64,000 nucleotides of DNA, from the NCBI RefSeq assembly GCF_900100605.1, contig NZ_FNCN01000012.1:97636-161635 (forward strand), read 5' to 3'. A program made the translations under genes and the position numbers. Origin of the DNA: Sinosporangium album (GTDB taxonomy: Bacteria; Actinomycetota; Actinomycetes; Streptosporangiales; Streptosporangiaceae). The notes beneath the pieces are model-generated. The model saw only the letters and a list, made by a program, of their open reading frames with translations. It searched no databases and was not told the origin of the DNA. The stretch's first letter is position 1, and the number at the start of each line of letters is the position of its first letter. Positions 13,431 to 21,894 of this stretch are shown here, piece by piece.

Positions 13431-14846
13431 CTAAGCAGCATTAGAAAGTCCTTGTTGGCCAGGTTCAGAATTGTCAACCTGAAGCTTCTCGGCGTTCTCG
13501 CGAGCCAACTCGGCGCGGCGCCGGGCAAGCTCGAAATCCATCTCACGCAACTCATCGAAACGCTCAATCTGCTGCGGCGAGTAGCCCACATCCGAGTAGA
13601 GCTGAAGGCGGGGAACGTCAAGCCCATTCGCAAGTTTCACAGCAGAGTCGATAAGCGCGGCCTGGTTACGGTATTGCGGATCGCCCCAAATTATTTCGGC
13701 GTCGTGAGCATCCGCCCGCTTATCGCCCAACACCTTGAAACAGAGCCGCATAACCGTCTCCCAGCTTTCGCCGAAGTGAAGCATGCGTTCACGGGCTTTA
13801 GCGACGAGACCGGCCTCAGCGCTCGTGATCGCCTCACCGGAGGGCGGTTGACCGCCACGGCCGATCAGGAAATAGTGAAACGGGATACGGGAGATCGCGG
13901 CGAGGGAAGCGATATACGCGTCGATCAGACGGACATAGTTACCCAAGTCCGCGGCTTCGAACTGCCCGAAAACCGTGTTCGCGTCCTCGGCCATCAACAG
14001 ACGATCGATCGCGATCTTGAAAGGCGATTTGGGGTTGCCCTGGTCGTCTTCTTCGATCTCCAAACCAGCAATATAACGCTGCGGGAATGCCGCAAACTCA
14101 GAAGCGATAAGAGCATCAGCGGCGATCTTAGAGATCGCGTCAGCGAGTGGAACGATCGGCTCAAGCTCGCTGAACGGGTCCGGCCTTAGCCGCGTCCGGT
14201 TATACAGCGGCACCACCGGAACCACACCCAGGGGATTAGGAGCCGCATCGGCCTCAGACCACCGCAGACGAGTGGCGCCAATATTTCCCGTACGGGACAG
14301 GGCCGTCGACGTATAAACCTTCTGAGGTGTCCACAGGGTGGCGTACTCAGTACCCCAGTCATCCCGATACCGCTTGAGCGCTGACATCACTTTACGGCGT
14401 GACCCGGGCTGGTATTGGACGTATACCTCTGACGCCGATTCCGGCGTGATAGTCGGCTGGCCATCTGCATCAGCCCACACCGTCGCATAAGCCGAACCGA
14501 GCGCAAGCGCATCGATATGGCACGCGTTACCATCCGCGTCCATACTGTTGCGCTGCCAAATCTGCCAAGCATTCCGATCCGCAGAAGGATCAGACGACAT
14601 CCTGAAACCCTCGACGCGGATACGCTCACTAATCGAGTCAATGATCAGGCCGCAAAAATTCACTTGCCAGCCTTGAAACATCGCACCAAAGGCTTCTTGG
14701 AAACGCACCTGGGCGTACTGGAGATTCGTGTTCTTGGAGTCGTAGTAGTCGGCGTACTTCTTCGCCTTGCCCTTTTGACCGCTCAGCTTGGAATCTAGGT
14801 ACGCCACCCATTCCAACGGGGTCTCAGGGGGTTTCCCTAGAGCCAG
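13431..14846 (-). CDS. Portal protein (SPP1 gp6-type), probable CTG start
   Basis: About 471 aa, following the large terminase. Typical features are LEWVAYLDSKL and YYDSKNTN near the N-terminus, a central WVADADG... region, PEIVPLADAISKIAADALIASEF, and a C-terminal crown with YRNQAALIDSAVKLANG and ELARENAEKL. It forms the dodecameric DNA-entry channel. TTG at 14856-14858 merges into the ribosome site itself. GGGAGG (14850-14855) is followed after CTAT by CTG (14844-14846), giving M-ALGKPPETPLEW. The spacing is the same as before the Dit gene. Confidence 0.88.
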   Translation of the reverse strand: MALGKPPETPLEWVAYLDSKLSGQKGKAKKYADYYDSKNTNLQYAQVRFQEAFGAMFQGWQVNFCGLIIDSISERIRVEGFRMSSDPSADRNAWQIWQRNSMDADGNACHIDALALGSAYATVWADADGQPTITPESASEVYVQYQPGSRRKVMSALKRYRDDWGTEYATLWTPQKVYTSTALSRTGNIGATRLRWSEADAAPNPLGVVPVVPLYNRTRLRPDPFSELEPIVPLADAISKIAADALIASEFAAFPQRYIAGLEIEEDDQGNPKSPFKIAIDRLLMAEDANTVFGQFEAADLGNYVRLIDAYIASLAAISRIPFHYFLIGRGGQPPSGEAITSAEAGLVAKARERMLHFGESWETVMRLCFKVLGDKRADAHDAEIIWGDPQYRNQAALIDSAVKLANGLDVPRLQLYSDVGYSPQQIERFDELREMDFELARRRAELARENAEKLQVDNSEPGQQGLSNAA

Positions 14847-14861
14847 ATAGCCTCCCAAATG

Positions 14862-16448
14862 CTAGAAGCCGCGTACACGGCGCTTCGCTTTCTTCAAACG
14901 GCCATCGGCAATCGCATCCCCGCGAGCCTCATAAGCCAGCACGGCCGCAACAGCGGCATCGATCTTCTTCTTTGAACGCGGGGTTTCTTTTCGAATGAGA
15001 GTGCCGGCGCGTATGTTTCGTTTCCTGGCATTCAAAATGTGGCGCGTCAAAGTCGCGTCGCCATCATGCGCGAGCTGACCTGTGATAACCGCAGTGTGGA
15101 AACGCTCAAGAGCCTGCACCATGCGGCCGTCTTTGTTCGTCCAGAACTCGAAAATCTTCTTCGTTCCGAACTCGATCGACCACCGGCCCACAATGTCCTG
15201 CCAATACGCGGGATCGCAATATGCCCACTCGACCCGATACGTTTTCTCGGCGGCGGCCATGGCCGCGTCAACGGCAAGGAAATCGACTTCCCAATCGTCG
15301 TCCGTGTCGGGTTTCTCCCACACACCCAGAACAAACAGTTTGCCGTCACGGAGGCGACAACCGATAAGCGCTGTGGAGTCGTTTCGGATTGAACCATCGA
15401 AACCGATAGCGATCTGATCACCCAATCGAATGGGGTCGGTATCGTCCCTGCGAGCCTGCCACGACGCACGATCCATCCACTGATCCGAACCGGCAACCAC
15501 CTGATTCAAAAAATAGCGGCGGGCGTCTTCTTCCTCGGTCGCCGGATTCCGGATCTCGGCAACAATCCGATCCAAATCGATCACCGAAGCGAAAGAACCA
15601 TACACGTAAACCAGTGCCTCTAGAAGCGCCTCAGTGTTGTTGATGTCAACCTCGGGCGCTTCCCGGTGATCCATCAAAACGCCCTGGTCTTTGATAAGGC
15701 CCTCGGAAACTTTCTGGAAGTACTCGTGAGTTGCTTCCGCTACCGAGTTTTCACCTGGGGCGTACATGGTGCTGGTTTCGAGCGACCACGGCTCGGCAAG
15801 TTTCCGCTTCACCAGGTTCCGGCGCACGGTCGAATATGTGCGCCTCAGTTCAGGGGTCGTCCACAGGTGGGTTTCGTCGTAACAAACCCACGTCTCTTTT
15901 CCGCCGTCCTTAGAAGCGGCGTTAGCCGTACTCGGCGTGATTTCCCCACCATCCGGGAGAATGATCCGAGTCAAACCCGAATCAACCCCGGAAACCTCGG
16001 CCAGAGGCCCGTGATCGAAATTGTATTTGATCACGTCGTAGACGTTTCCGGCCTGGTTCTCCTCGGTGGCCATGATGCGGATATAGGGCACCATGACAGG
16101 GCGGCCTACAGGATTACCCTCTTTATCCCGGTGGGAGAACCGGACCGGCCCAAGCGCTTCGGCGCATCCGATGAAACCGCCAAGCTCGGATTTCGCGCGC
16201 CCTTTCGAACGGCTGATGAAAGCCTGGTTTACACGCCGGCGCCCAACGGAATCTACCTCGTAGCAATCGATGATGAAACGAGCGAACTCGACATCACGCC
16301 AACCTGTCTCGTCGGGCGTCAGGAGGTGAACGGGCTGCCCCTGGACGTCGCCAGGGCCATGCACACACCACTCCTCAATCCATAGACAGAGATCCCATCC
16401 GAGAGAGTGTTTTGGTGGCGTCCACGAGCCGTCAGACAGATAGGGCAA
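14862..16448 (-). CDS. Terminase large subunit
   Basis: A 528-aa packaging motor and DNA nuclease. A deviant Walker A (RSKGRAKSE, about residues 80-88) and Walker B with catalytic acid (WVCYDETHLW, residues about 187-196) form the ATPase; the C-terminal nuclease has IGFDGSIRNDSTALIG and YCDPAYWQD with metal-binding aspartates. TTG start at 16446-16448 with TGGAG 4 nt upstream. It is followed by the portal gene and preceded by tRNA-Gln, so the tRNA cluster separates it from the small terminase gene. Confidence 0.92.
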   Translation of the reverse strand: MPYLSDGSWTPPKHSLGWDLCLWIEEWCVHGPGDVQGQPVHLLTPDETGWRDVEFARFIIDCYEVDSVGRRRVNQAFISRSKGRAKSELGGFIGCAEALGPVRFSHRDKEGNPVGRPVMVPYIRIMATEENQAGNVYDVIKYNFDHGPLAEVSGVDSGLTRIILPDGGEITPSTANAASKDGGKETWVCYDETHLWTTPELRRTYSTVRRNLVKRKLAEPWSLETSTMYAPGENSVAEATHEYFQKVSEGLIKDQGVLMDHREAPEVDINNTEALLEALVYVYGSFASVIDLDRIVAEIRNPATEEEDARRYFLNQVVAGSDQWMDRASWQARRDDTDPIRLGDQIAIGFDGSIRNDSTALIGCRLRDGKLFVLGVWEKPDTDDDWEVDFLAVDAAMAAAEKTYRVEWAYCDPAYWQDIVGRWSIEFGTKKIFEFWTNKDGRMVQALERFHTAVITGQLAHDGDATLTRHILNARKRNIRAGTLIRKETPRSKKKIDAAVAAVLAYEARGDAIADGRLKKAKRRVRGF

Positions 16449-16468
16449 TAGGCTCCAAAGTTATCCTG

Positions 16469-16539
16469 CTCCCCGTTAGAGATTCGAACTCCACCCGCAC
16501 AGTCCAAAGCCGTGCATCCTGCCACTAGACGACCGGGGA
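16469..16539 (-). tRNA. tRNA-Gln (TTG), phage-encoded
   Basis: Cloverleaf folds on the minus strand with acceptor TCCCCGG/ACGGGGA (a G7-A66 mismatch), D arm, anticodon stem CACGG/CTGTG and loop CTTTGGA, giving anticodon TTG for CAA/CAG. T arm has TTCGAAT. CCA is not encoded. It stands just upstream of the large terminase gene. The host has its own tRNA-Gln(TTG) at 50444-50515 with a different sequence. Confidence 0.88.
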
Positions 16540-16575
16540 TAGACAGATGCCGCTCCAAGAAAAGTGCGGCGAAGG

Positions 16576-16884
16576 TTACGCACGCTCTGTGAGGTTGCGC
16601 GCGGTAAGTGCCCTCAACCTGCGGTACTTTTCAGGTGTATCGTGCCCGTCCCACACCGCCACATCGTTGCCGACAATAGGCACGTGAGCGAATAGATAGA
16701 GGTCGCTTGGCGCGATATGCCACGACAATTGGCCTTCAGGTGTGTCGATGTACACCAAAGGCCATTCAGGTTCTTCTGGGTCGTTGTAGGAAATCAATGA
16801 GGGGTGTAGTGCAGCTAGATGAGCTACCAGCGCGGAACGCTCACTATAGATGTCAAGCACGCGCAATCCCGTAATAGCCTCCAC
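16576..16884 (-). CDS. Phage protein of unknown function
   Basis: A 102-aa soluble protein (HIAPSDLYLFAHVPIVGNDVAVWDGHDTPEKYRRLRAL). The WDGHDTPEKYRRL segment is familiar from uncharacterised actinophage proteins encoded near terminases or tRNAs, but I cannot name a function. GTG start with AAGAGG 5 nt upstream. It lies between tRNA-Asn and tRNA-Gln on the same strand, and is probably cotranscribed with them. No membrane segment, signal peptide or nucleotide-binding motif is visible. Confidence 0.7.
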   Translation of the reverse strand: MEAITGLRVLDIYSERSALVAHLAALHPSLISYNDPEEPEWPLVYIDTPEGQLSWHIAPSDLYLFAHVPIVGNDVAVWDGHDTPEKYRRLRALTARNLTERA

Positions 16885-16930
16885 CCATGCCTCTTTCTAA
16901 GTGGTATCGCCGATATCTCGATCTTCCTCG

Positions 16931-17003
16931 CTGGCGTGGCTGGACTCGAACCAGCAACCCGCGCATTAACAGTGCGCCGCTCCACCAATTGAGCTACACG
17001 CCA
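16931..17003 (-). tRNA. tRNA-Asn (GTT), phage-encoded
   Basis: Well-formed cloverleaf: acceptor TGGCGTG/CACGCCA, D stem GCTC/GAGC, anticodon stem GCGCA/TGCGC with loop CTGTTAA (anticodon GTT), T arm TGCTGG with TTCGAGT. Discriminator G. It is the third member of a tandem cluster, 5 bp after tRNA-Arg. Confidence 0.92.
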
Positions 17004-17008
17004 ATGAG

Positions 17009-17082
17009 TACGGTCCCCGGGACTCGAACCCGGAACCCGCCGATTAGAAGTCGGCTGCTCTAACCAATTGAGCCAGAACCGC
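17009..17082 (-). tRNA. tRNA-Arg (TCT), phage-encoded
   Basis: Cloverleaf with acceptor GCGGTTC/GGACCGT (wobble pairs at 1-72 and 6-67), D stem GCTC/GAGC, anticodon stem GCCGA/TCGGC and loop CTTCTAA, anticodon TCT reading AGA/AGG. These arginine codons are rare in high-GC hosts. It is separated from tRNA-Val by a single base. Confidence 0.92.
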
Positions 17083-17083
17083 G

Positions 17084-17155
17084 TACCGCTCCGAGGAATC
17101 GAACCCCGCGCCACCTGTGTGTAAAATAGGTGCTCTACCAATGAGCTAGAGCGGC
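17084..17155 (-). tRNA. tRNA-Val (TAC), phage-encoded
   Basis: Acceptor GCCGCTC/GAGCGGT, D stem GCTC/GAGC, anticodon loop TTTACAC (anticodon TAC, reading GTA) on a stem CCTAT/ACAGG with one A-C mismatch, T loop TTCGATT. The stem mismatch makes it slightly irregular but the fold is clear. First of the tight Val-Arg-Asn cluster. Confidence 0.85.
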
Positions 17156-17224
17156 AAAAGAAGCCTTTCTGCCTCCGGCGGAACCCTGTGACCGGAACGA
17201 TTCCGGCCGCCGGATACAACAGGT

Positions 17225-17557
17225 TCAGCCGCTGCCTGAAGAACCACCACGGCCACCGAAACCGCCACGCGATATCACCTGCCCGCTACGGCTCGTGATG
17301 TTCGCGTTCTTCGGCTTCACCGTGCTGCCGCCGCTTACATGCCCACCGCTGTTAGAGCCGCCGTAATACCAGACATAGTCCGCGCTTCTGTTGCCGCAAT
17401 GCCGGTCATCTACAATCTGGTAGGAACCGTTCGGCAACGGCTGTGAGGCGACGCAGTCGGCCGCGAGGTTCTGGCCGCATGCGGCAAGGAGGGCGGCCGA
17501 GAGCGCTCCCGCAGCACTGAAAACAATCATTTTGGAAGCTTTCAATCCCGAACCCAT
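17225..17557 (-). CDS. Small Gly-rich putative lipoprotein
   Basis: A 110-aa protein with a lipoprotein signal: basic n-region (MGSGLKASK), hydrophobic stretch VFSAAGALSAALLAA and Cys in LLAACGQ, the likely lipidated residue. The mature part has two further Cys (ADCVASQ, DRHCGNR) and ends in a Gly/Ser/Arg-rich tail (GGFGGRGGSSGSG). I chose ATG 17555-17557 because it supplies the basic n-region; ATG 17528-17530 would lack it. Small phage lipoproteins expressed from lysogens can act in superinfection exclusion or surface change, but nothing here proves that. It overlaps the end of a 43-codon frame by 16 bp. Confidence 0.6.
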   Translation of the reverse strand: MGSGLKASKMIVFSAAGALSAALLAACGQNLAADCVASQPLPNGSYQIVDDRHCGNRSADYVWYYGGSNSGGHVSGGSTVKPKNANITSRSGQVISRGGFGGRGGSSGSG

Positions 17558-17673
17558 AGGCGCTTCTTGGCCTTCCGCTGGATGCGCTTCACCATACGTT
17601 TCCACCCGGTATTGCGGTAACACCAATCTTCGTAGTGACCCTGGAGAGCAGCAGCGCTCAACATTCTCGCTAT
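17542..17673 (-). CDS. Small basic phage protein, probable ATA start
   Basis: A 43-aa frame too short for routine gene calling. From ATA (17671-17673) it reads M-ARMLSAAALQGHYEDWC followed by YRNTGWKRMVKRIQRKAKKR. GGAGG (17678-17682) is 4 nt upstream of ATA, whereas the first ATG (17662-17664) is 13 nt away. The strongly basic amphipathic C-terminus (KRMVKRIQRKAKKRLWVRD) suggests nucleic-acid binding, an inference only. It lies between tRNA-Pro and the lipoprotein gene and overlaps the latter, consistent with coupled translation. Confidence 0.5.
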   Translation of the reverse strand: MARMLSAAALQGHYEDWCYRNTGWKRMVKRIQRKAKKRLWVRD

Positions 17674-17696
17674 AACGCCTCCAAACAGCTAGCGAG

Positions 17697-17767
17697 TGCG
17701 GAATAGAGGAATCGAACCTCTGACGCTCGCATCCAAAGCGACCGTGATGCCTCTTCACCAATTCCAC
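17697..17767 (-). tRNA. tRNA-Pro (TGG) probable, phage-encoded
   Basis: Acceptor GTGGAAT/ATTCCGC pairs fully (one T-G), D stem GTGA/TCAC, anticodon stem GTCGC/GCGAG (outer pair G-G mismatched) with loop TTTGGAT, so positions 34-36 are TGG, reading CCA. T arm AGAGG-TTCGATT-CCTCT. A37 is unusual for tRNA-Pro, which mostly has G37, so identity is less sure than the tRNA call. Confidence 0.75.
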
Positions 17768-17806
17768 ATTGCTTCCGCATCGCGACGGCTGGACAACTAC
17801 CGCGAC

Positions 17807-18026
17807 ATGGTGAAGAATGACCACATGGCCGACGGCATGGAGAACGTTGATCAGCTCGCAGAATTGTTGAAAGCTGTAACGCGCGGTGTCAAAGGACTAG
17901 AGGCGCACTTTGACGATACGGGTGTACGCCTTACGGAGATACTGCGAACATTCCCCACGGAATGTGCTGGAAGCGCTCAAAACTGCTTCTAGCAAAGCTC
18001 TCGATCGTGACGGGAATGACGACTAA
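17807..18026 (+). pseudogene. Small plus-strand gene with a frameshift
   Basis: On the strand opposite to the surrounding phage genes, ATG 17807 opens MVKNDHMADGMENVDQLAEL and continues LLKAVTRGVKGLEAHF, a helical acidic protein. The frame ends at TAG 17990-17992. In the next frame, directly after CCCC at 17953-17956, the sequence continues NVLEALKTASSKALDRDGND to TAA 18024-18026, with matching composition. Removing one C restores a single frame of about 72 codons. It may be a recently broken gene, a sequencing slip in a C run, or a frameshifted product. No function recognised. A strong hairpin at 18079-18108 would terminate it. Confidence 0.35.
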
Positions 18027-18078
18027 AGCAGGGTAGAACTAGGTAATCGATTCTTTTTCGCGGTCAAGCGGGATATCA

Positions 18079-18108
18079 CAGTACAGCCCACTCCGATGGG
18101 CTGTACTG
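18079..18108. terminator. Strong 12-bp hairpin, probable bidirectional terminator
   Basis: CAGTACAGCCCA and TGGGCTGTACTG form a perfect 12-bp stem with a 6-nt loop CTCCGA. It lies between the plus-strand small gene and the minus-strand tRNA-Met, with no U tract on either side, as is common in actinobacteria. It may instead be a processing site for the tRNA transcript. Confidence 0.55.
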
Positions 18109-18125
18109 CCTACCCGGCGAATGAG

Positions 18126-18196
18126 TGGCGGGATCGGGAATCGAACCCGAAGCGCGAGCCTATGAAACTCGCATGTTACCGTTACACCATCCCGCT
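18126..18196 (-). tRNA. tRNA-Met-type (CAT), phage-encoded, mismatched 1-72 pair
   Basis: Folds as a cloverleaf: acceptor AGCGGGA/TCCCGCC, D stem GTGT/ACAT, anticodon stem CGAGT/GCTCG with loop TTCATAG (anticodon CAT), T arm TCGGG-TTCGATT-CCCGA, discriminator A. Pairs 2-71 to 7-66 are sound but A1 faces C72. A weak 1-72 pair is a recognised formylation feature of initiator tRNAs, yet the three G-C pairs of an initiator anticodon stem are absent. An elongator Met or a lysidine-modified Ile tRNA remain possible. Its 5' part contains the TAA stop of the upstream Acb2-like frame. Confidence 0.82.
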
Positions 18197-18388
18197 ACGA
18201 TCCCGCGCCAGCGCGGCATTACCCCAAAACATCACATGCTCAAGATGCGTCAGAGCCAGACTCGTTTCGCGGCTATCCGGCAACAGATCATTCAACGTTG
18301 CGAATAGACGCCGGCACTCGGCGCGAACCGTTTCATGTTTCGCTCGCCGCGCCTCATCAGGCGCGTGATAGTCAAGTCACCGCGACAA
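18182..18388 (-). CDS. Acb2/Tad1-hairpin-like anti-defence small protein; in-frame TGA at codon 4
   Basis: The frame reads DYHAPDEARRAKHETVRAEC, then RRLFATLNDLLPDSRETS, then LALTHLEHVMFWGNAALARD and RSGMV. The YH-P ... H-VR ... P-SRE-SLALT-LE--MFW-NAA-AR pattern is that of the phage Acb2/Tad1 hairpin family, small sponge proteins that sequester cyclic nucleotide signals of CBASS and Thoeris defence (known for the family). TTG 18386-18388 starts one base after the stop of the preceding gene, but codon 4 is TGA (18377-18379), one C-to-T change from CGA. Either the gene was silenced by a nonsense mutation, the UGA is read through, or translation restarts just after it. The stop lies inside tRNA-Met. 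Confidence 0.65.
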
Positions 18389-18389
18389 C

Positions 18390-18623
18390 TCATCCTGAGT
18401 CAGGGGCAGAAGCGGTAAACCTTCCATACTCGGCCGCGCGGTCGGCGGCCTGCTTGATGTACTCGATACGCCGCGCGGGCACTGTGATCGTGACCGTGTC
18501 GGCCTCTGTGTCGATGTCGACCGCCGCGACGGCCGCGCGCACGGGATCATCGTCGATATAGACGCGCCACCGGCCGTCCAGGTGATGCACGGTCACCACA
18601 TCGGCCACGACGTCGGCGGTCAT
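18390..18623 (-). CDS. Small phage protein of unknown function
   Basis: A 77-aa acidic protein with regular beta-strand character (VVTVHHLDGRWRVYIDDDPVRAAVAAVDIDTEADTVTITVPARRIEYIKQAADRAAEYG) and a short C-terminal helix. I do not recognise it. The ATG overlaps the stop of the small terminase gene (ATGA), showing coupling, and its own stop is 1 nt from the TTG of the Acb2-like frame. The lack of membrane segments and the position between terminase and a likely anti-defence gene make an accessory role possible. Confidence 0.65.
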   Translation of the reverse strand: MTADVVADVVTVHHLDGRWRVYIDDDPVRAAVAAVDIDTEADTVTITVPARRIEYIKQAADRAAEYGRFTASAPDSG

Positions 18624-19066
18624 GAGACCTCGCTCAGGTCGCTCAGATCCCTCACAGCGCCCCTACGGGGCATCGGAGTGACAACGGCCAGCGAAGGACT
18701 CTCCTCGTCCTCTGGAACGAGCTGGAGGCGCAGACGCGCCCTGTCCTCGGGGGTCGCACCCCACTTGGCGACCCGTAGCCGTAGCTCGGACGCGACCGTC
18801 AGGTTCCCCCGGTAGTAGGCGTCAGCGAGATATGCAGTCTCGCTGAGGAACGCCCAATCGGTGGACGTGAACATGTGAGCCTGAGGGCTCGTAGCCCATG
18901 TCTCCCACCATCGGAGAGTCTGAGGGTGCCAGTCCCCCTCCGGCAGATCGGGCGTTGGGCCGTCGAAGGGCTTGTCAGGCACCTTGATTGCTTTGGCGTC
19001 GATGCGCGCCCTGGTGTCGCGCGCCCGCTGATGCGTCGCCCTCGGCGGCGCTCCCTTACCGGCCAC
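18620..19066 (-). CDS. Terminase small subunit
   Basis: A 148-aa protein with the order seen in actinophage small terminases: basic N-terminus (GKGAPPRATHQRARDT), proline-rich linker (PDKPFDGPTPDLPEGDWHPQTLRWWETWATSPQ), then a helical core ending in LRLRVAKWGATPEDRARLRLQL. It recognises the packaging start site and regulates the large subunit. GTG start with GGGAGG upstream. It overlaps the HNH gene by 11 bp; HNH nuclease next to small terminase is a common arrangement with a known packaging role in several phages. Confidence 0.85.
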   Translation of the reverse strand: MAGKGAPPRATHQRARDTRARIDAKAIKVPDKPFDGPTPDLPEGDWHPQTLRWWETWATSPQAHMFTSTDWAFLSETAYLADAYYRGNLTVASELRLRVAKWGATPEDRARLRLQLVPEDEESPSLAVVTPMPRRGAVRDLSDLSEVS

Positions 19067-19400
19067 GATTCCTCCCCTCCCTGCTCTCCTTGGTCGTCTT
19101 CTCGCTATGACATGACTCGCACAACACCCGCAGGTTCGTCAGGTCCCATGACCCACCCCGCGCTACGGGGATGACATGGTCCACAATGCGGCTATCCGCC
19201 GCACCACACAGACGGCACCTGTAGCCGTCCCGCAGACGCGCCTTGAGGCGCGTTGTGGACCAATCTGACGGCCTAGCAGTGTTCCTCGGGCTGTCGGCCC
19301 ACGGCCGCCGCCTGTGAGCCCCACAATGGCCTGTAGCGCCCTGAGGGCTGGCCGGTCTAGCGCATCCACTGGTCGCGCACACTGCGCGTGCTCTCGGCGT
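19056..19400 (-). CDS. HNH endonuclease, probable ACG start
   Basis: About 114 aa. An N-terminal zinc knuckle (CATSGC ... GHCGAH) is followed by the HNH core RLCGAADSRIVDHVIPVARG and LRVLCESCHSEKT, in which DHV supplies the general-base His and the paired Cys bind structural zinc. The upstream in-frame TTG (19497-19499) would add an unlikely Arg-rich stretch that reaches the hairpin array. AAGGGGG at 19406-19412 is followed after 5 nt by ACG (19398-19400) and gives M-PRARAVCATSGC, the normal start of phage HNH proteins. It probably nicks or cleaves DNA during packaging with terminase. Confidence 0.82.
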   Translation of the reverse strand, partial: TPRARAVCATSGCARPASPQGATGHCGAHRRRPWADSPRNTARPSDWSTTRLKARLRDGYRCRLCGAADSRIVDHVIPVARGGSWDLTNLRVLCESCHSEKTTKESREGRNRGR

Positions 19401-19491
19401 CGCGACCCCCTTAGCGACGGACAGATGAATTAAGTTCCGGGCGCGGACGCGCCCACAAATCGCCGGATCAACAAATCTTTTTCTCCGGCGT

Positions 19492-19662
19492 GCGCGCAAG
19501 CGCGCGTTACTACTAGTAGTAGTGCGGCCGAAGGCCGCTACTAAGTTAGTTAGTAGGGGCCGGAGGCCCCACTAGTCAGTCAGTGCGCCGGAGGCGCAGT
19601 AATGGTTAGTGCAGCCCTGACGGGCTGCCCGCGCTACAGCGCGGATCGGGGGCTTCGCCCCC
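19492..19662. repeat. Array of seven short GC hairpins with TAGT-like spacers
   Basis: Seven consecutive perfect stem-loops with 5-7 bp stems and 3-4 nt loops occupy 170 bp: 19492-19505, 19524-19538, 19556-19570, 19584-19598, 19611-19628, 19629-19644 and 19648-19662. Loops are CAAG, GAA, GGA, GGA, TGAC, TACA and TTC. The first four spacers are AT-richer and made of short tandem words (TAGTAGTAG, GTTAGTTAG, AGTCAGTCAG). The stems differ from each other, so this is structural rather than sequence repetition. It lies between the divergent HNH and leaderless/HTH transcription units. Confidence 0.85.
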
Positions 19663-20241: not shown

Positions 20242-21894
20242 CTATTCTATTTCCTTCGGGCGAATCCTTCCCCACGCAATTGCCTCGGGGTCGTCAGGCG
20301 TGCCCTGCGCTCTGAGTGCCATAGCCTTCAAGTCCCCCCAATCCACGTGAATGATGGGGGCTACATTGCGCTTGCGGCGACCCTCGCCGCCGAGGGCCCA
20401 CGTCTTGGATCCGAGTGTCGCCCTGGGCAGATCCGGCCATTCATCGGGATCTCTCAGGTCGTGCCATACCAAAGCGTAAACTTTCACGCCCATAGCTCGC
20501 AGTTCTGCGGCCTGCTGCTGCTCGCTCAGGGAATTCCAGTAGCTCGCATAGGTCTCTCCGGTGTCGACCCAATCTGTGCGGGCGGGTGAAGTTGGCCTAG
20601 CTGTCAGTTCCGCATGGATTTGTTCCAACCTGGCGTATATTTCGCGATACCTGGCCGCCCCCTCCGGTCCCGAATAGAGACCATACAAGTATCTATCCTC
20701 CTCAAGCTCCTTGATGGAATCCTCTACCTGTTGAATCTCCTCGGAATAGTCGACCCCCTCGAAGTGGACAGGTTCTAGCCGCTTAATATCACCTGCCCAT
20801 GCGAGTAGTGATTCTTCTACGTGCGACTCTACGGGTGCGGCGGGTATCCCGCGTAGTATGCACGGCGGGTCATTGTTAATTGCCGAACACCTGTAGTATC
20901 GGTGGTTCCCGCGAGACTTGAGTTTGTACATGACGCTACGGCAAATAGGGCAGTATAGTACTTGCAAGAGCTTTGACCCGTTGCTGCGTGGCCCTTTCTT
21001 CGCCCGCTTCCTCTCGTCGAGTGCTGCTTGGATTTGCTTCCATTTGCTAAGTGAGATCAGAGGTTCGGCTCTTGCGACGGGCAGCCCATCGTCGCCTTTC
21101 AAGACACGCGCACTCGACCCGGCGATGTGTCGGAAGCCGAGCAGAATTTTGCTTCTGAGCATTTCAAGAACATTCGCTGTAGACCATCCGCTGTCCTTGA
21201 TCGGAAGCCCTCGGCTGGCGCGGAAGTGATTTCTTGGAGCCAAGGTTGCCCTGCGGTTGAGGTCAATGGTTATGGAACGAACGGATTCGCCTTTGAGAAC
21301 ACGTTCGATGATTTCCCATAGCACGGCAGAGGCGACGGGGTCCGGAATCAGCTTCCATCCGTTTTCGGTTTTGAACGGCATGTATCCGTATGGGGTAGTG
21401 CCGCCGGTCCACTTCCCCATTTTGGCGTTGTGGTCGTAAGCCTGCTTTGCGCGGAAGCGCATTGTTCGGCCTTCAAACTCCGCGAAGACGGCCAGGATGG
21501 TAGCGACCATGCGGCCAATTTCTGTACTCAGATCGATGCCATCATCGATGGTTACGATTCTGATGTTGTGGCGGTCGGCCCATTCGAGGATGTAAAGAAA
21601 GTCGATCGCCTTGCGGGCGATCCGGTCTAGCTTCCAGGCGACGATGACGTCGTAGTCCTGGGGCCGGTTGAGCCACTCTGCAAGCTGCGGCCTGTCCCAG
21701 GGAGAGGTGTGGATAGCGGAGACGTCCAAGTCTTCGGCGTAGCCGACGACCACCGCGTCCTTGAGGTCCGCCCACTGGTCGACCTTGAGTCGCTGACGCT
21801 CGGGGCTGCTGCTGGTGTCGGTGAGGTTGGACAGGCGGATAAGCCCGACCACCCTCAGGGGCGTGCGCGCTGATAGAGCCGCTGTAGTTGACAT
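20242..21894 (-). CDS. int: Large serine recombinase (phage integrase)
   Basis: A 550-aa large serine integrase that recombines attP with attB. The N-terminal resolvase domain has the nucleophile Ser22 in VGLIRLSNL and YDVIVAWKLDRIARKA with DNA-phosphate arginines; the recombinase domain follows (GKWTGGTTPYGYMPF); a zinc ribbon CPICRSVMYK ... YYRCSAINNDPPC and a coiled coil (EEIQQVEDSIKELEEDRY ... YARLEQIHAELT) form the C-terminal attachment-site-reading part. ATG start. It sits next to the right junction, as expected for this class. Nothing suggests inactivation. Its att preference here is for a coding sequence of a host SDR gene. Confidence 0.95.
   Translation of the reverse strand: MSTTAALSARTPLRVVGLIRLSNLTDTSSSPERQRLKVDQWADLKDAVVVGYAEDLDVSAIHTSPWDRPQLAEWLNRPQDYDVIVAWKLDRIARKAIDFLYILEWADRHNIRIVTIDDGIDLSTEIGRMVATILAVFAEFEGRTMRFRAKQAYDHNAKMGKWTGGTTPYGYMPFKTENGWKLIPDPVASAVLWEIIERVLKGESVRSITIDLNRRATLAPRNHFRASRGLPIKDSGWSTANVLEMLRSKILLGFRHIAGSSARVLKGDDGLPVARAEPLISLSKWKQIQAALDERKRAKKGPRSNGSKLLQVLYCPICRSVMYKLKSRGNHRYYRCSAINNDPPCILRGIPAAPVESHVEESLLAWAGDIKRLEPVHFEGVDYSEEIQQVEDSIKELEEDRYLYGLYSGPEGAARYREIYARLEQIHAELTARPTSPARTDWVDTGETYASYWNSLSEQQQAAELRAMGVKVYALVWHDLRDPDEWPDLPRATLGSKTWALGGEGRRKRNVAPIIHVDWGDLKAMALRAQGTPDDPEAIAWGRIRPKEIE

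What the first reader, a model, noticed from the sequence alone, without database searches (positions are those of the whole stretch)
18182..18388. Hidden Acb2/Tad1-hairpin-like anti-defence gene with a nonsense codon near its start
A short minus-strand frame missed by ordinary gene calling carries the YHAP ... VR ... LPDSRETSLALTHLE ... FWGNAALARD pattern of the phage Acb2/Tad1 hairpin family that sequesters cyclic nucleotide signals of CBASS/Thoeris. A TTG start lies one base after the preceding gene, but codon 4 is TGA (CGA in one step). The frame is otherwise intact, so inactivation is recent, or UGA is bypassed, or translation re-initiates just after it. The stop sits inside the tRNA-Met gene.
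Basis: partly seen in the sequence, partly recalled or inferred. Interest (0 to 1): 0.72.

Follow-up and report, generated by a model that had tools for sequence, protein, structure and literature searches.

The report
Broken Acb2 sponge gene in prophage
A virus dormant in a bacterial genome carries a gene of the Acb2 family, which mops up bacterial alarm molecules, but the gene is cut short by a stop signal where nearly all its close relatives have one particular amino acid, so it is probably switched off; similar breaks are already known in other phages.

Summary
The minus-strand frame at 18182-18388 matches Pfam Acb2_Tad1_hairpin at 70.4 bits (cut-off 27) and holds an in-frame TGA. Two details change. 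The family's N-terminus lies upstream of the proposed TTG: the frame runs back to ATG 18427, overlapping the previous gene by 38 bases, which makes the TGA (18379-18377) codon 17. And the TGA sits at the subfamily's near-invariant Arg (87 of 88 other distinct relatives that could be aligned). Re-initiation just after it is unlikely: the next ATG/GTG/TTG in frame is 27 codons on. The gene lies beside the small terminase gene of a complete-looking serine-integrase prophage, where UGA is an ordinary stop. Best reading: an Acb2-type cyclic-nucleotide sponge gene silenced by one nonsense codon. Natural acb2 stops are in print (PaMx41; PMC12657218). The host shows no SMODS CBASS synthase but has a type III CRISPR locus with a GGDD Cas10, and a SAVED protein 10.7 kb from the predicted prophage end; no causal link is shown. 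'Recent' is not established; a sequencing error cannot be excluded.

The parts
18182..18427 (-). acb2-like gene frame from ATG 18427 to TAA 18182; 81 codons plus stop, interrupted by TGA
   Evidence: PF24729 70.4 bits over residues 2-58 of the 64 that follow the stop
18377..18379 (-). in-frame TGA at the column that holds Arg in 87 of 88 other distinct relatives aligned
18380..18427 (-). N-terminal 16 codons (MEGLPLLPLTQDELSR), overlapping the 3' end of the upstream gene; short N-terminal helix in the model
18185..18376 (-). intact hairpin-coding part after the stop, 64 codons, two long helices in the model
18386..18388 (-).
18390..18623 (-). upstream 77-aa ORF, no Pfam match, ends in TGA; overlaps the acb2 frame by 38 bases if ATG 18427 is the start
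18620..19066 (-). terminase small subunit (PF25673)
19056..19499 (-). HNH endonuclease
18125..18196 (-). tRNA-Met; its 5' 15 bases overlap the 3' end of the acb2 frame
14862..16448 (-). terminase large subunit
13431..14858 (-). portal (SPP1 Gp6-like)
20242..21894 (-). large serine integrase

Best explanation
The locus is an accessory gene of the Acb2/Tad1-hairpin family (Acb2-type: one short N-terminal helix plus a long two-helix hairpin) beside the small terminase gene of a prophage. It has been inactivated by a single in-frame UGA, most likely codon 17 counted from ATG 18427, at the position of a near-invariant arginine. An intact relative would be expected to bind cyclic di- or trinucleotide alarm signals of the host and keep them from effectors (inferred from the family, not shown here). 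As written, this copy should yield only a short N-terminal peptide (16 residues from ATG 18427), plus whatever trace of UGA readthrough occurs, so the prophage probably lacks a working sponge. Shown: family match, stop, position of the stop, lack of a nearby restart, prophage setting, UGA used as an ordinary stop. Inferred: loss of function, and that the loss was neutral or favoured in the present host.
For: PF24729 at 70.4 bits against a cut-off of 27. Among 341 genomes of the host's family, 17 carry the family (18 matches, all over cut-off); this copy ranks seventh of 18 by bits but has the shortest open frame (64 aa; the others 76-331). Of 89 distinct relatives aligned (own copy included) 87 have Arg, 1 Asp and only this one a stop at that column. 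The N-terminal extension fits the family. AlphaFold2 with TGA read as Trp gives mean pLDDT 87.9 with helices 11-18, 25-48 and 53-75. 19 of the first 23 BFVD matches are named Acb2/Tad1 hairpin proteins; the best PDB fold rows are T4 Vs.4 (7uq2), weak on their own (E 1.9-2.6, prob 0.63-0.77). PDB sequence search: 'Acb2 homolog 43' E 3.4e-8. No in-frame start within 27 codons after the stop. 32 of 72 ORFs picked by a composition rule in the prophage and its edges end in TGA. Natural acb2 stops have a published precedent (PMC12657218 passages).
Against: The sequence is a 97-contig draft and the only other copy (L001/L028) is identical and apparently from the same source, so a base-calling error at 18379 cannot be excluded. 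No relative above 65% identity was found, so timing and direction of the change rest on the family consensus. The Arg is not universal in PF24729: three distinct sequences from the host's family (L114/L124, L115, L117) are too distant to align to my profile and lack the motif. UGA followed by C is recalled as a leaky context, so some full-length product is possible.
Confidence: 0.8

Rival explanations
1. Sequencing or assembly error: the gene is intact in the real prophage and is an ordinary expressed Acb2 homologue.
For: One codon only; the frame is otherwise open; draft assembly of 97 contigs.
Against: Four further departures from near-invariant columns (F to L, A to F, G to S, K to T) fit a gene under weaker constraint, though that test is biased and divergent relatives depart more. 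The identical IMG/VR copy is not independent.
Confidence: 0.12
2. Regulated or leaky UGA readthrough: the stop keeps sponge dose low during lysogeny, and a little full-length protein is made.
For: Intact frame after the stop; the base after the stop is C, recalled as a leaky context.
Against: None of the 88 other distinct relatives aligned shares the stop. The usual residue there is Arg, which neither Trp insertion nor selenocysteine supplies. No tRNA with anticodon TCA in the window or the 27.7 kb left of it. Sponges work by concentration, so trace amounts should do little (inference from PMC12043709 passages).
Confidence: 0.05
3. Selected loss: the prophage or its ancestor lost Acb2 because a host guard system punishes sponges, as Panoptes does to T4.
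For: Published precedent: 14 of 15 T4 escapers of Panoptes had mutations exclusively in acb2, with premature stops among the mutations, and PaMx41 has a natural acb2 stop (PMC12657218 passages). Here the host carries a Cas10 with GGDD in a type III locus and a SAVED protein 10.7 kb from the predicted prophage end.
Against: No OptS/OptE-like pair was identified, but no specific model for one was run. The host's SAVED gene has relatives next to type III CRISPR genes in 3 of 5 surroundings read, where signalling is activating, not inhibitory (recalled). The two minus-strand ORFs upstream of it have no Pfam or PADLOC match and may not be genes.
Confidence: 0.1
4. Translation from a downstream start (TTG 18295) makes a functional short C-terminal peptide.
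For: A 37-aa ORF is present.
Against: It begins at residue 45, so it lacks the N-terminal helix and nearly all of the first long helix (residues 25-48 of the model).
Confidence: 0.03

Closest known systems
Acb2 of phage T4 (Vs.4) and of Pseudomonas phages PaMx33/PaMx41
   Same: Hairpin family, short N-terminal helix plus two long helices; PaMx41 also carries a natural premature stop in acb2 (PMC12657218 passages; PMC12043709 passages).
   Different: Different phage type; stop at the near-invariant Arg close to the N-terminus; binding and anti-CBASS activity untested.
Tad1 (Thoeris anti-defence 1)
   Same: Shares the C-terminal hairpin: PDB Tad1 chains E 0.0013-0.15; VIA Z 5.6-5.8, no higher than unrelated helical rows.
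   Different: Tad1 has an N-terminal beta-sheet domain (PMC12043709 passage); the model here has none.
Actinobacteriophage 'cyclic nucleotide sequestering protein' genes (StellaBean gp101, Xandras/BigBubba, Statler gp57)
   Same: StellaBean: same family by tblastn, annotated so in GenBank. The others are reported in PMC11953737 (passages) and PMC13348362 (part 1 of 2 of the text).
   Different: Those are reported without mention of a stop.
T4 escape mutants of the Panoptes defence
   Same: acb2 loss, including premature stops (PMC12657218 passages).
   Different: Laboratory selection with a known cause; here the cause is unknown.

Membership tests
Acb2/Tad1 hairpin domain (PF24729) | profile match above the curated cut-off | tested here: met
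   70.4 bits against 27; 69.4 in the genome search
Acb2/Tad1 hairpin domain (PF24729) | two-helix hairpin | tested here: met
   helices 25-48 and 53-75, mean pLDDT 87.9, TGA read as Trp
Acb2/Tad1 hairpin domain (PF24729) | near-invariant residues of the aligned relatives | tested here: inconclusive
   15 of 20 columns at 90% or more kept; one is the stop, and F, A, G, K are replaced. The comparison set was partly fetched by patterns that cover the G and K columns.
Acb2 proper | one short N-terminal helix before the hairpin, no beta-sheet domain | tested here: met
   helix 11-18; architecture from PMC12043709 passage
Acb2 proper | continuous reading frame | tested here: not met
   TGA at 18379-18377. 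It is therefore filed as a broken member, not as a working Acb2.
Acb2 proper | binds cyclic di- and trinucleotides, hexamer | not testable with these tools
   no assay; ligand residues of T4 Acb2 were not mapped residue by residue
Tad1 | N-terminal beta-sheet domain | tested here: not met
   no strand in the model of the frame from ATG 18427
recoded or programmed-readthrough UGA gene | stop conserved in relatives | tested here: not met
   0 of 88 other distinct relatives aligned

The most novel reading that the evidence does not exclude
The stop is an adaptive off-switch: the prophage gave up its sponge because the host uses cyclic-nucleotide signalling (Cas10 plus a SAVED sensor close to the prophage) in a way that makes a working sponge costly, i.e. 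a Panoptes-like guard outside the known OptS/OptE pairs, and the intact downstream frame keeps a one-step return open.
Probability: 0.07. Interest if true: 0.65.

Novelty: new member of a known kind. Interest (0 to 1): 0.3.

Why it matters
It adds a natural broken acb2 to the few reported cases of acb2 lost in the wild, and shows how a short anti-defence gene with a stop escapes gene calling. If stops in this gene recur in prophages of hosts with cyclic-nucleotide defences, their frequency would measure the trade-off proposed for Panoptes versus CBASS.

Tried and rejected
Start of the gene: the ATG at 18393 that overlaps the upstream stop was considered; it is in another frame and yields a 33-aa ORF without the family's residues, so a frameshift model was dropped once the N-terminal match in the TGA frame was seen. 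ATG 18550 also opens the TGA frame but lies deep inside the upstream gene. Close relatives for dating: in the phage collection the 2 kb around the locus matched 6 records, each over 4-7% of the query; two genomes at 59% and 56% in genome contigs; in viral contigs the best apart from the same provirus is 65% (one search keeps 80 of 165). The upstream ORF has no other relative found in viral contigs. Small terminase relatives were found in 32 of 338 family genomes, own included, and in 2 further viral contigs; in the 11 such loci on hand besides the window's own copy (L150, L151, L153-L161, 1.9-3.5 kb each) none carries the acb2 profile. Relaxed constraint: 5 departures at 20 near-invariant columns against about 1.5 expected at its overall identity (residual s.d. 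1.2), but most comparison loci were fetched with patterns that cover some of those columns, and three divergent relatives depart more (6-7), so this is only a hint. DncV-like search: nothing rang in the controls either, so it says nothing. Five spacers read from the host's CRISPR-like repeats gave no match to the prophage longer than 12 bases (best to the rest of the window 15 bases); some of the DNA searched was masked, so this is weak. Fold match to T4 Vs.4 in the second look (Z 7.2) is tied with unrelated helical chains and was not used as proof.

Rows dropped before counts: of 124 loci on hand 118 gave a profile match. The 6 others are two stretches of the own genome (L021, L022) and four PF24729 members (L114, L115, L117, L124; three distinct sequences) that the profile does not reach; read by eye they have TGYR.HPQD or TGYRELPQD there and no clear Arg column. 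The 118 were merged to 89 distinct cores, the window's own copies (L001, L017, L018, L028) counting as one. The genomes (200; 338) are samples of the host's family. One search used 30 of the 88 other distinct relatives.

Full report
What is there. The minus strand at 18388-18182 reads LSR*LDYHAPDEARRAKHETVRAECRRLFATLNDLLPDSRETSLALTHLEHVMFWGNAALARDRSGMV*. The 64 residues after the stop match Pfam Acb2_Tad1_hairpin over positions 1-58 of 58 (E 1.4e-19, 70.4 bits, cut-off 27) and phrog_1454. Against a family profile built without the window's row, it is the only six-frame stretch of the 64 kb above threshold (E 1.8e-26; next 0.69). The match is far beyond chance.

Setting. The window is G000:C28:97636-161635 of a 7.06 Mb draft genome. 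On the minus strand the order is HNH nuclease, small terminase, a 77-aa ORF, this frame, tRNA-Met, tRNA-Pro, tRNA-Val, tRNA-Arg, tRNA-Asn, a WDGH-domain ORF, tRNA-Gln, large terminase, portal, then capsid, tail, tape measure, minor tail and endolysin genes; a large serine integrase lies at 20242-21894. IMG/VR holds the same DNA as a 47,443-base provirus (L001, no mismatch over 6192 bases), by arithmetic C28:72087-119529. That copy is apparently from the same source and is no independent check. Attachment sites were not looked for.

Where the gene starts. The TGA frame stays open upstream through TTG 18388 to ATG 18427 and beyond. The stretch MEGLPLLPLTQDELSR*LDYHAP lines up with relatives such as MTPEDIEHRFAFHAA and MTPEELNRRFDHHPP. 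Adding it lifts phrog_1454 from 77.8 to 81.0 bits and moves the match start from model position 18 to 9. Of 2000 random stop-free 16-residue peptides from the prophage part of the window put in its place, 10 scored as high when this gene's own DNA was left out and 18 when it was not. The model puts a helix at residues 11-18, which spans the proposed TTG (residue 14). So ATG 18427 (or CTG 18403) fits better than TTG 18388, though relatives with short N-termini exist: StellaBean's annotated start lies 4 codons before the match.

What the stop replaces. In 118 loci with a profile match (89 distinct cores, own copy included) the column holds Arg in 87, Asp in 1 (StellaBean) and the stop in this one. 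All six Arg codons occur. None of the other 88 has a stop there. Four further PF24729 loci (three distinct sequences) are too distant for the profile and have no clear Arg column, so the Arg marks the subfamily, not the whole Pfam family. The family search in the host's family found 18 matches in 17 of 341 genomes; this copy ranks seventh by bits but has the shortest open frame.

Can it still be made? No ATG, GTG, TTG, CTG or ATH codon lies in frame for 27 codons after the stop; the next is TTG 18295, near the end of the first long helix. UGA is an ordinary stop here: the two genes upstream end in it and so do 32 of 72 ORFs picked by a composition rule over the prophage and its edges (14 of 33, 6 of 12 and 12 of 27). 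No tRNA with a UGA-reading anticodon was seen among 7 tRNAs in the window, and ARAGORN found none at all in 27.7 kb to its left. Readthrough at low level cannot be excluded.

Is the loss recent? The frame is open for 64 codons and scores like intact relatives, which argues against long decay. But it departs from 4 more of 20 near-invariant columns, 5 with the stop, against about 1.5 expected. That test is biased because many of the comparison loci were fetched with conserved patterns from the same columns. I leave the age open.

Fold. With the stop read as Trp and 30 relatives, AlphaFold2 gives mean pLDDT 87.9 and pTM 0.68, with a short helix and two long ones, as described for Acb2 protomers (PMC12043709, passages). 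Foldseek's best PDB rows include T4 Vs.4 with cGAMP (7uq2, ranks 1, 2 and 4; E 1.9-2.6, prob 0.63-0.77), weak on their own; the second look gives Z 7.2 for it, tied with unrelated helical rows. Against viral models, 19 of the first 23 rows are named Acb2/Tad1 hairpin proteins, best E 4.2e-5. By sequence, PDB 9ptq 'Acb2 homolog 43' matches at E 3.4e-8 and most Tad1 chains at about 0.001.

Host defences. No SMODS synthase was found in the own genome, while the control rang in 3 of 14 genomes, 2 over the cut-off. The DncV-like model is uninformative. One TIR domain lies in a 2042-aa ORF; Thoeris itself was not tested with specific models. A Cas10 second-palm hit lies in a locus with RAMP proteins, Cas5, Cas3 and Cas1; the Cas10 ORF has a GGDD motif, and CRISPR-like repeats follow. 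A 381-aa protein with a strongly hydrophobic segment at about 86-107 and a SAVED domain (35.8 bits, cut-off 26.2; 21.7 bits, under the cut-off, in the genome search) lies at C28:60209-61354, 10.7 kb left of the predicted prophage end. PADLOC's SAVED_TM model gives it 154 bits and a model named CorA-like 409. Matches to it occur in 10 of 200 family genomes, own included, two of them weak. I read the surroundings of five; in three of them (L142, L144, L145) homologues of the host's type III genes stand within a few kb, in two (L141, L143) none was found in 15 kb. So the host probably has a type III CRISPR system with nucleotide signalling and a possible membrane SAVED effector. Whether an Acb2 would touch that signal is unknown.

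Known precedents. T4 phages escaping Panoptes carry acb2 loss mutations including premature stops, and the authors cite a natural premature stop in PaMx41 acb2 and a binding-site change in T2 (PMC12657218, passages). PaMx41 mutants with a lengthened orf24 product led to the naming of Acb2 (PMC12043709, passages). Actinophage acb2 genes are annotated. Type III effectors with SAVED domains are described in PMC11229360 (passages). The listings of my searches showed no title or abstract start about a broken acb2 in such a prophage; that library lacks many journals.

Verdict. A genuine Acb2-family gene, broken by one in-frame stop at a near-invariant arginine, in an otherwise complete-looking prophage. 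It is a new, probably inactive member of a known family, with a known precedent for the break. The link to host signalling defences is worth a survey but is not shown.

Noticed in passing
L127:8210-9355 (host contig C28:60209-61354, minus): SAVED-domain protein with a hydrophobic segment; PADLOC SAVED_TM 154 bits and a model labelled CorA-like 409 bits. In 3 of 5 surroundings read, relatives stand near type III CRISPR genes; here it stands apart from them.
   Followed up: partly
L140:2062-18195 (host contig C6): Divergent type III (Cas10 with GGDD plus RAMPs) and type I (Cas5, Cas3, Cas1) gene sets side by side, followed by CRISPR-like repeats.
   Followed up: partly
window 16468-18196: Six phage tRNA genes (Gln, Asn, Arg, Val, Pro, Met) between the small and large terminase genes, one overlapping the 3' end of the acb2 frame.
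   Followed up: no
L128:5700-11828 (host contig C50): 2042-aa ORF with a TIR domain and a match to a HEAT/ARM PADLOC model.
   Followed up: no
L114/L124, L115, L117: A distant branch of PF24729 (62-69 bits) with TGYR.HPQD-type N-termini in genomes of the host's family.
   Followed up: no
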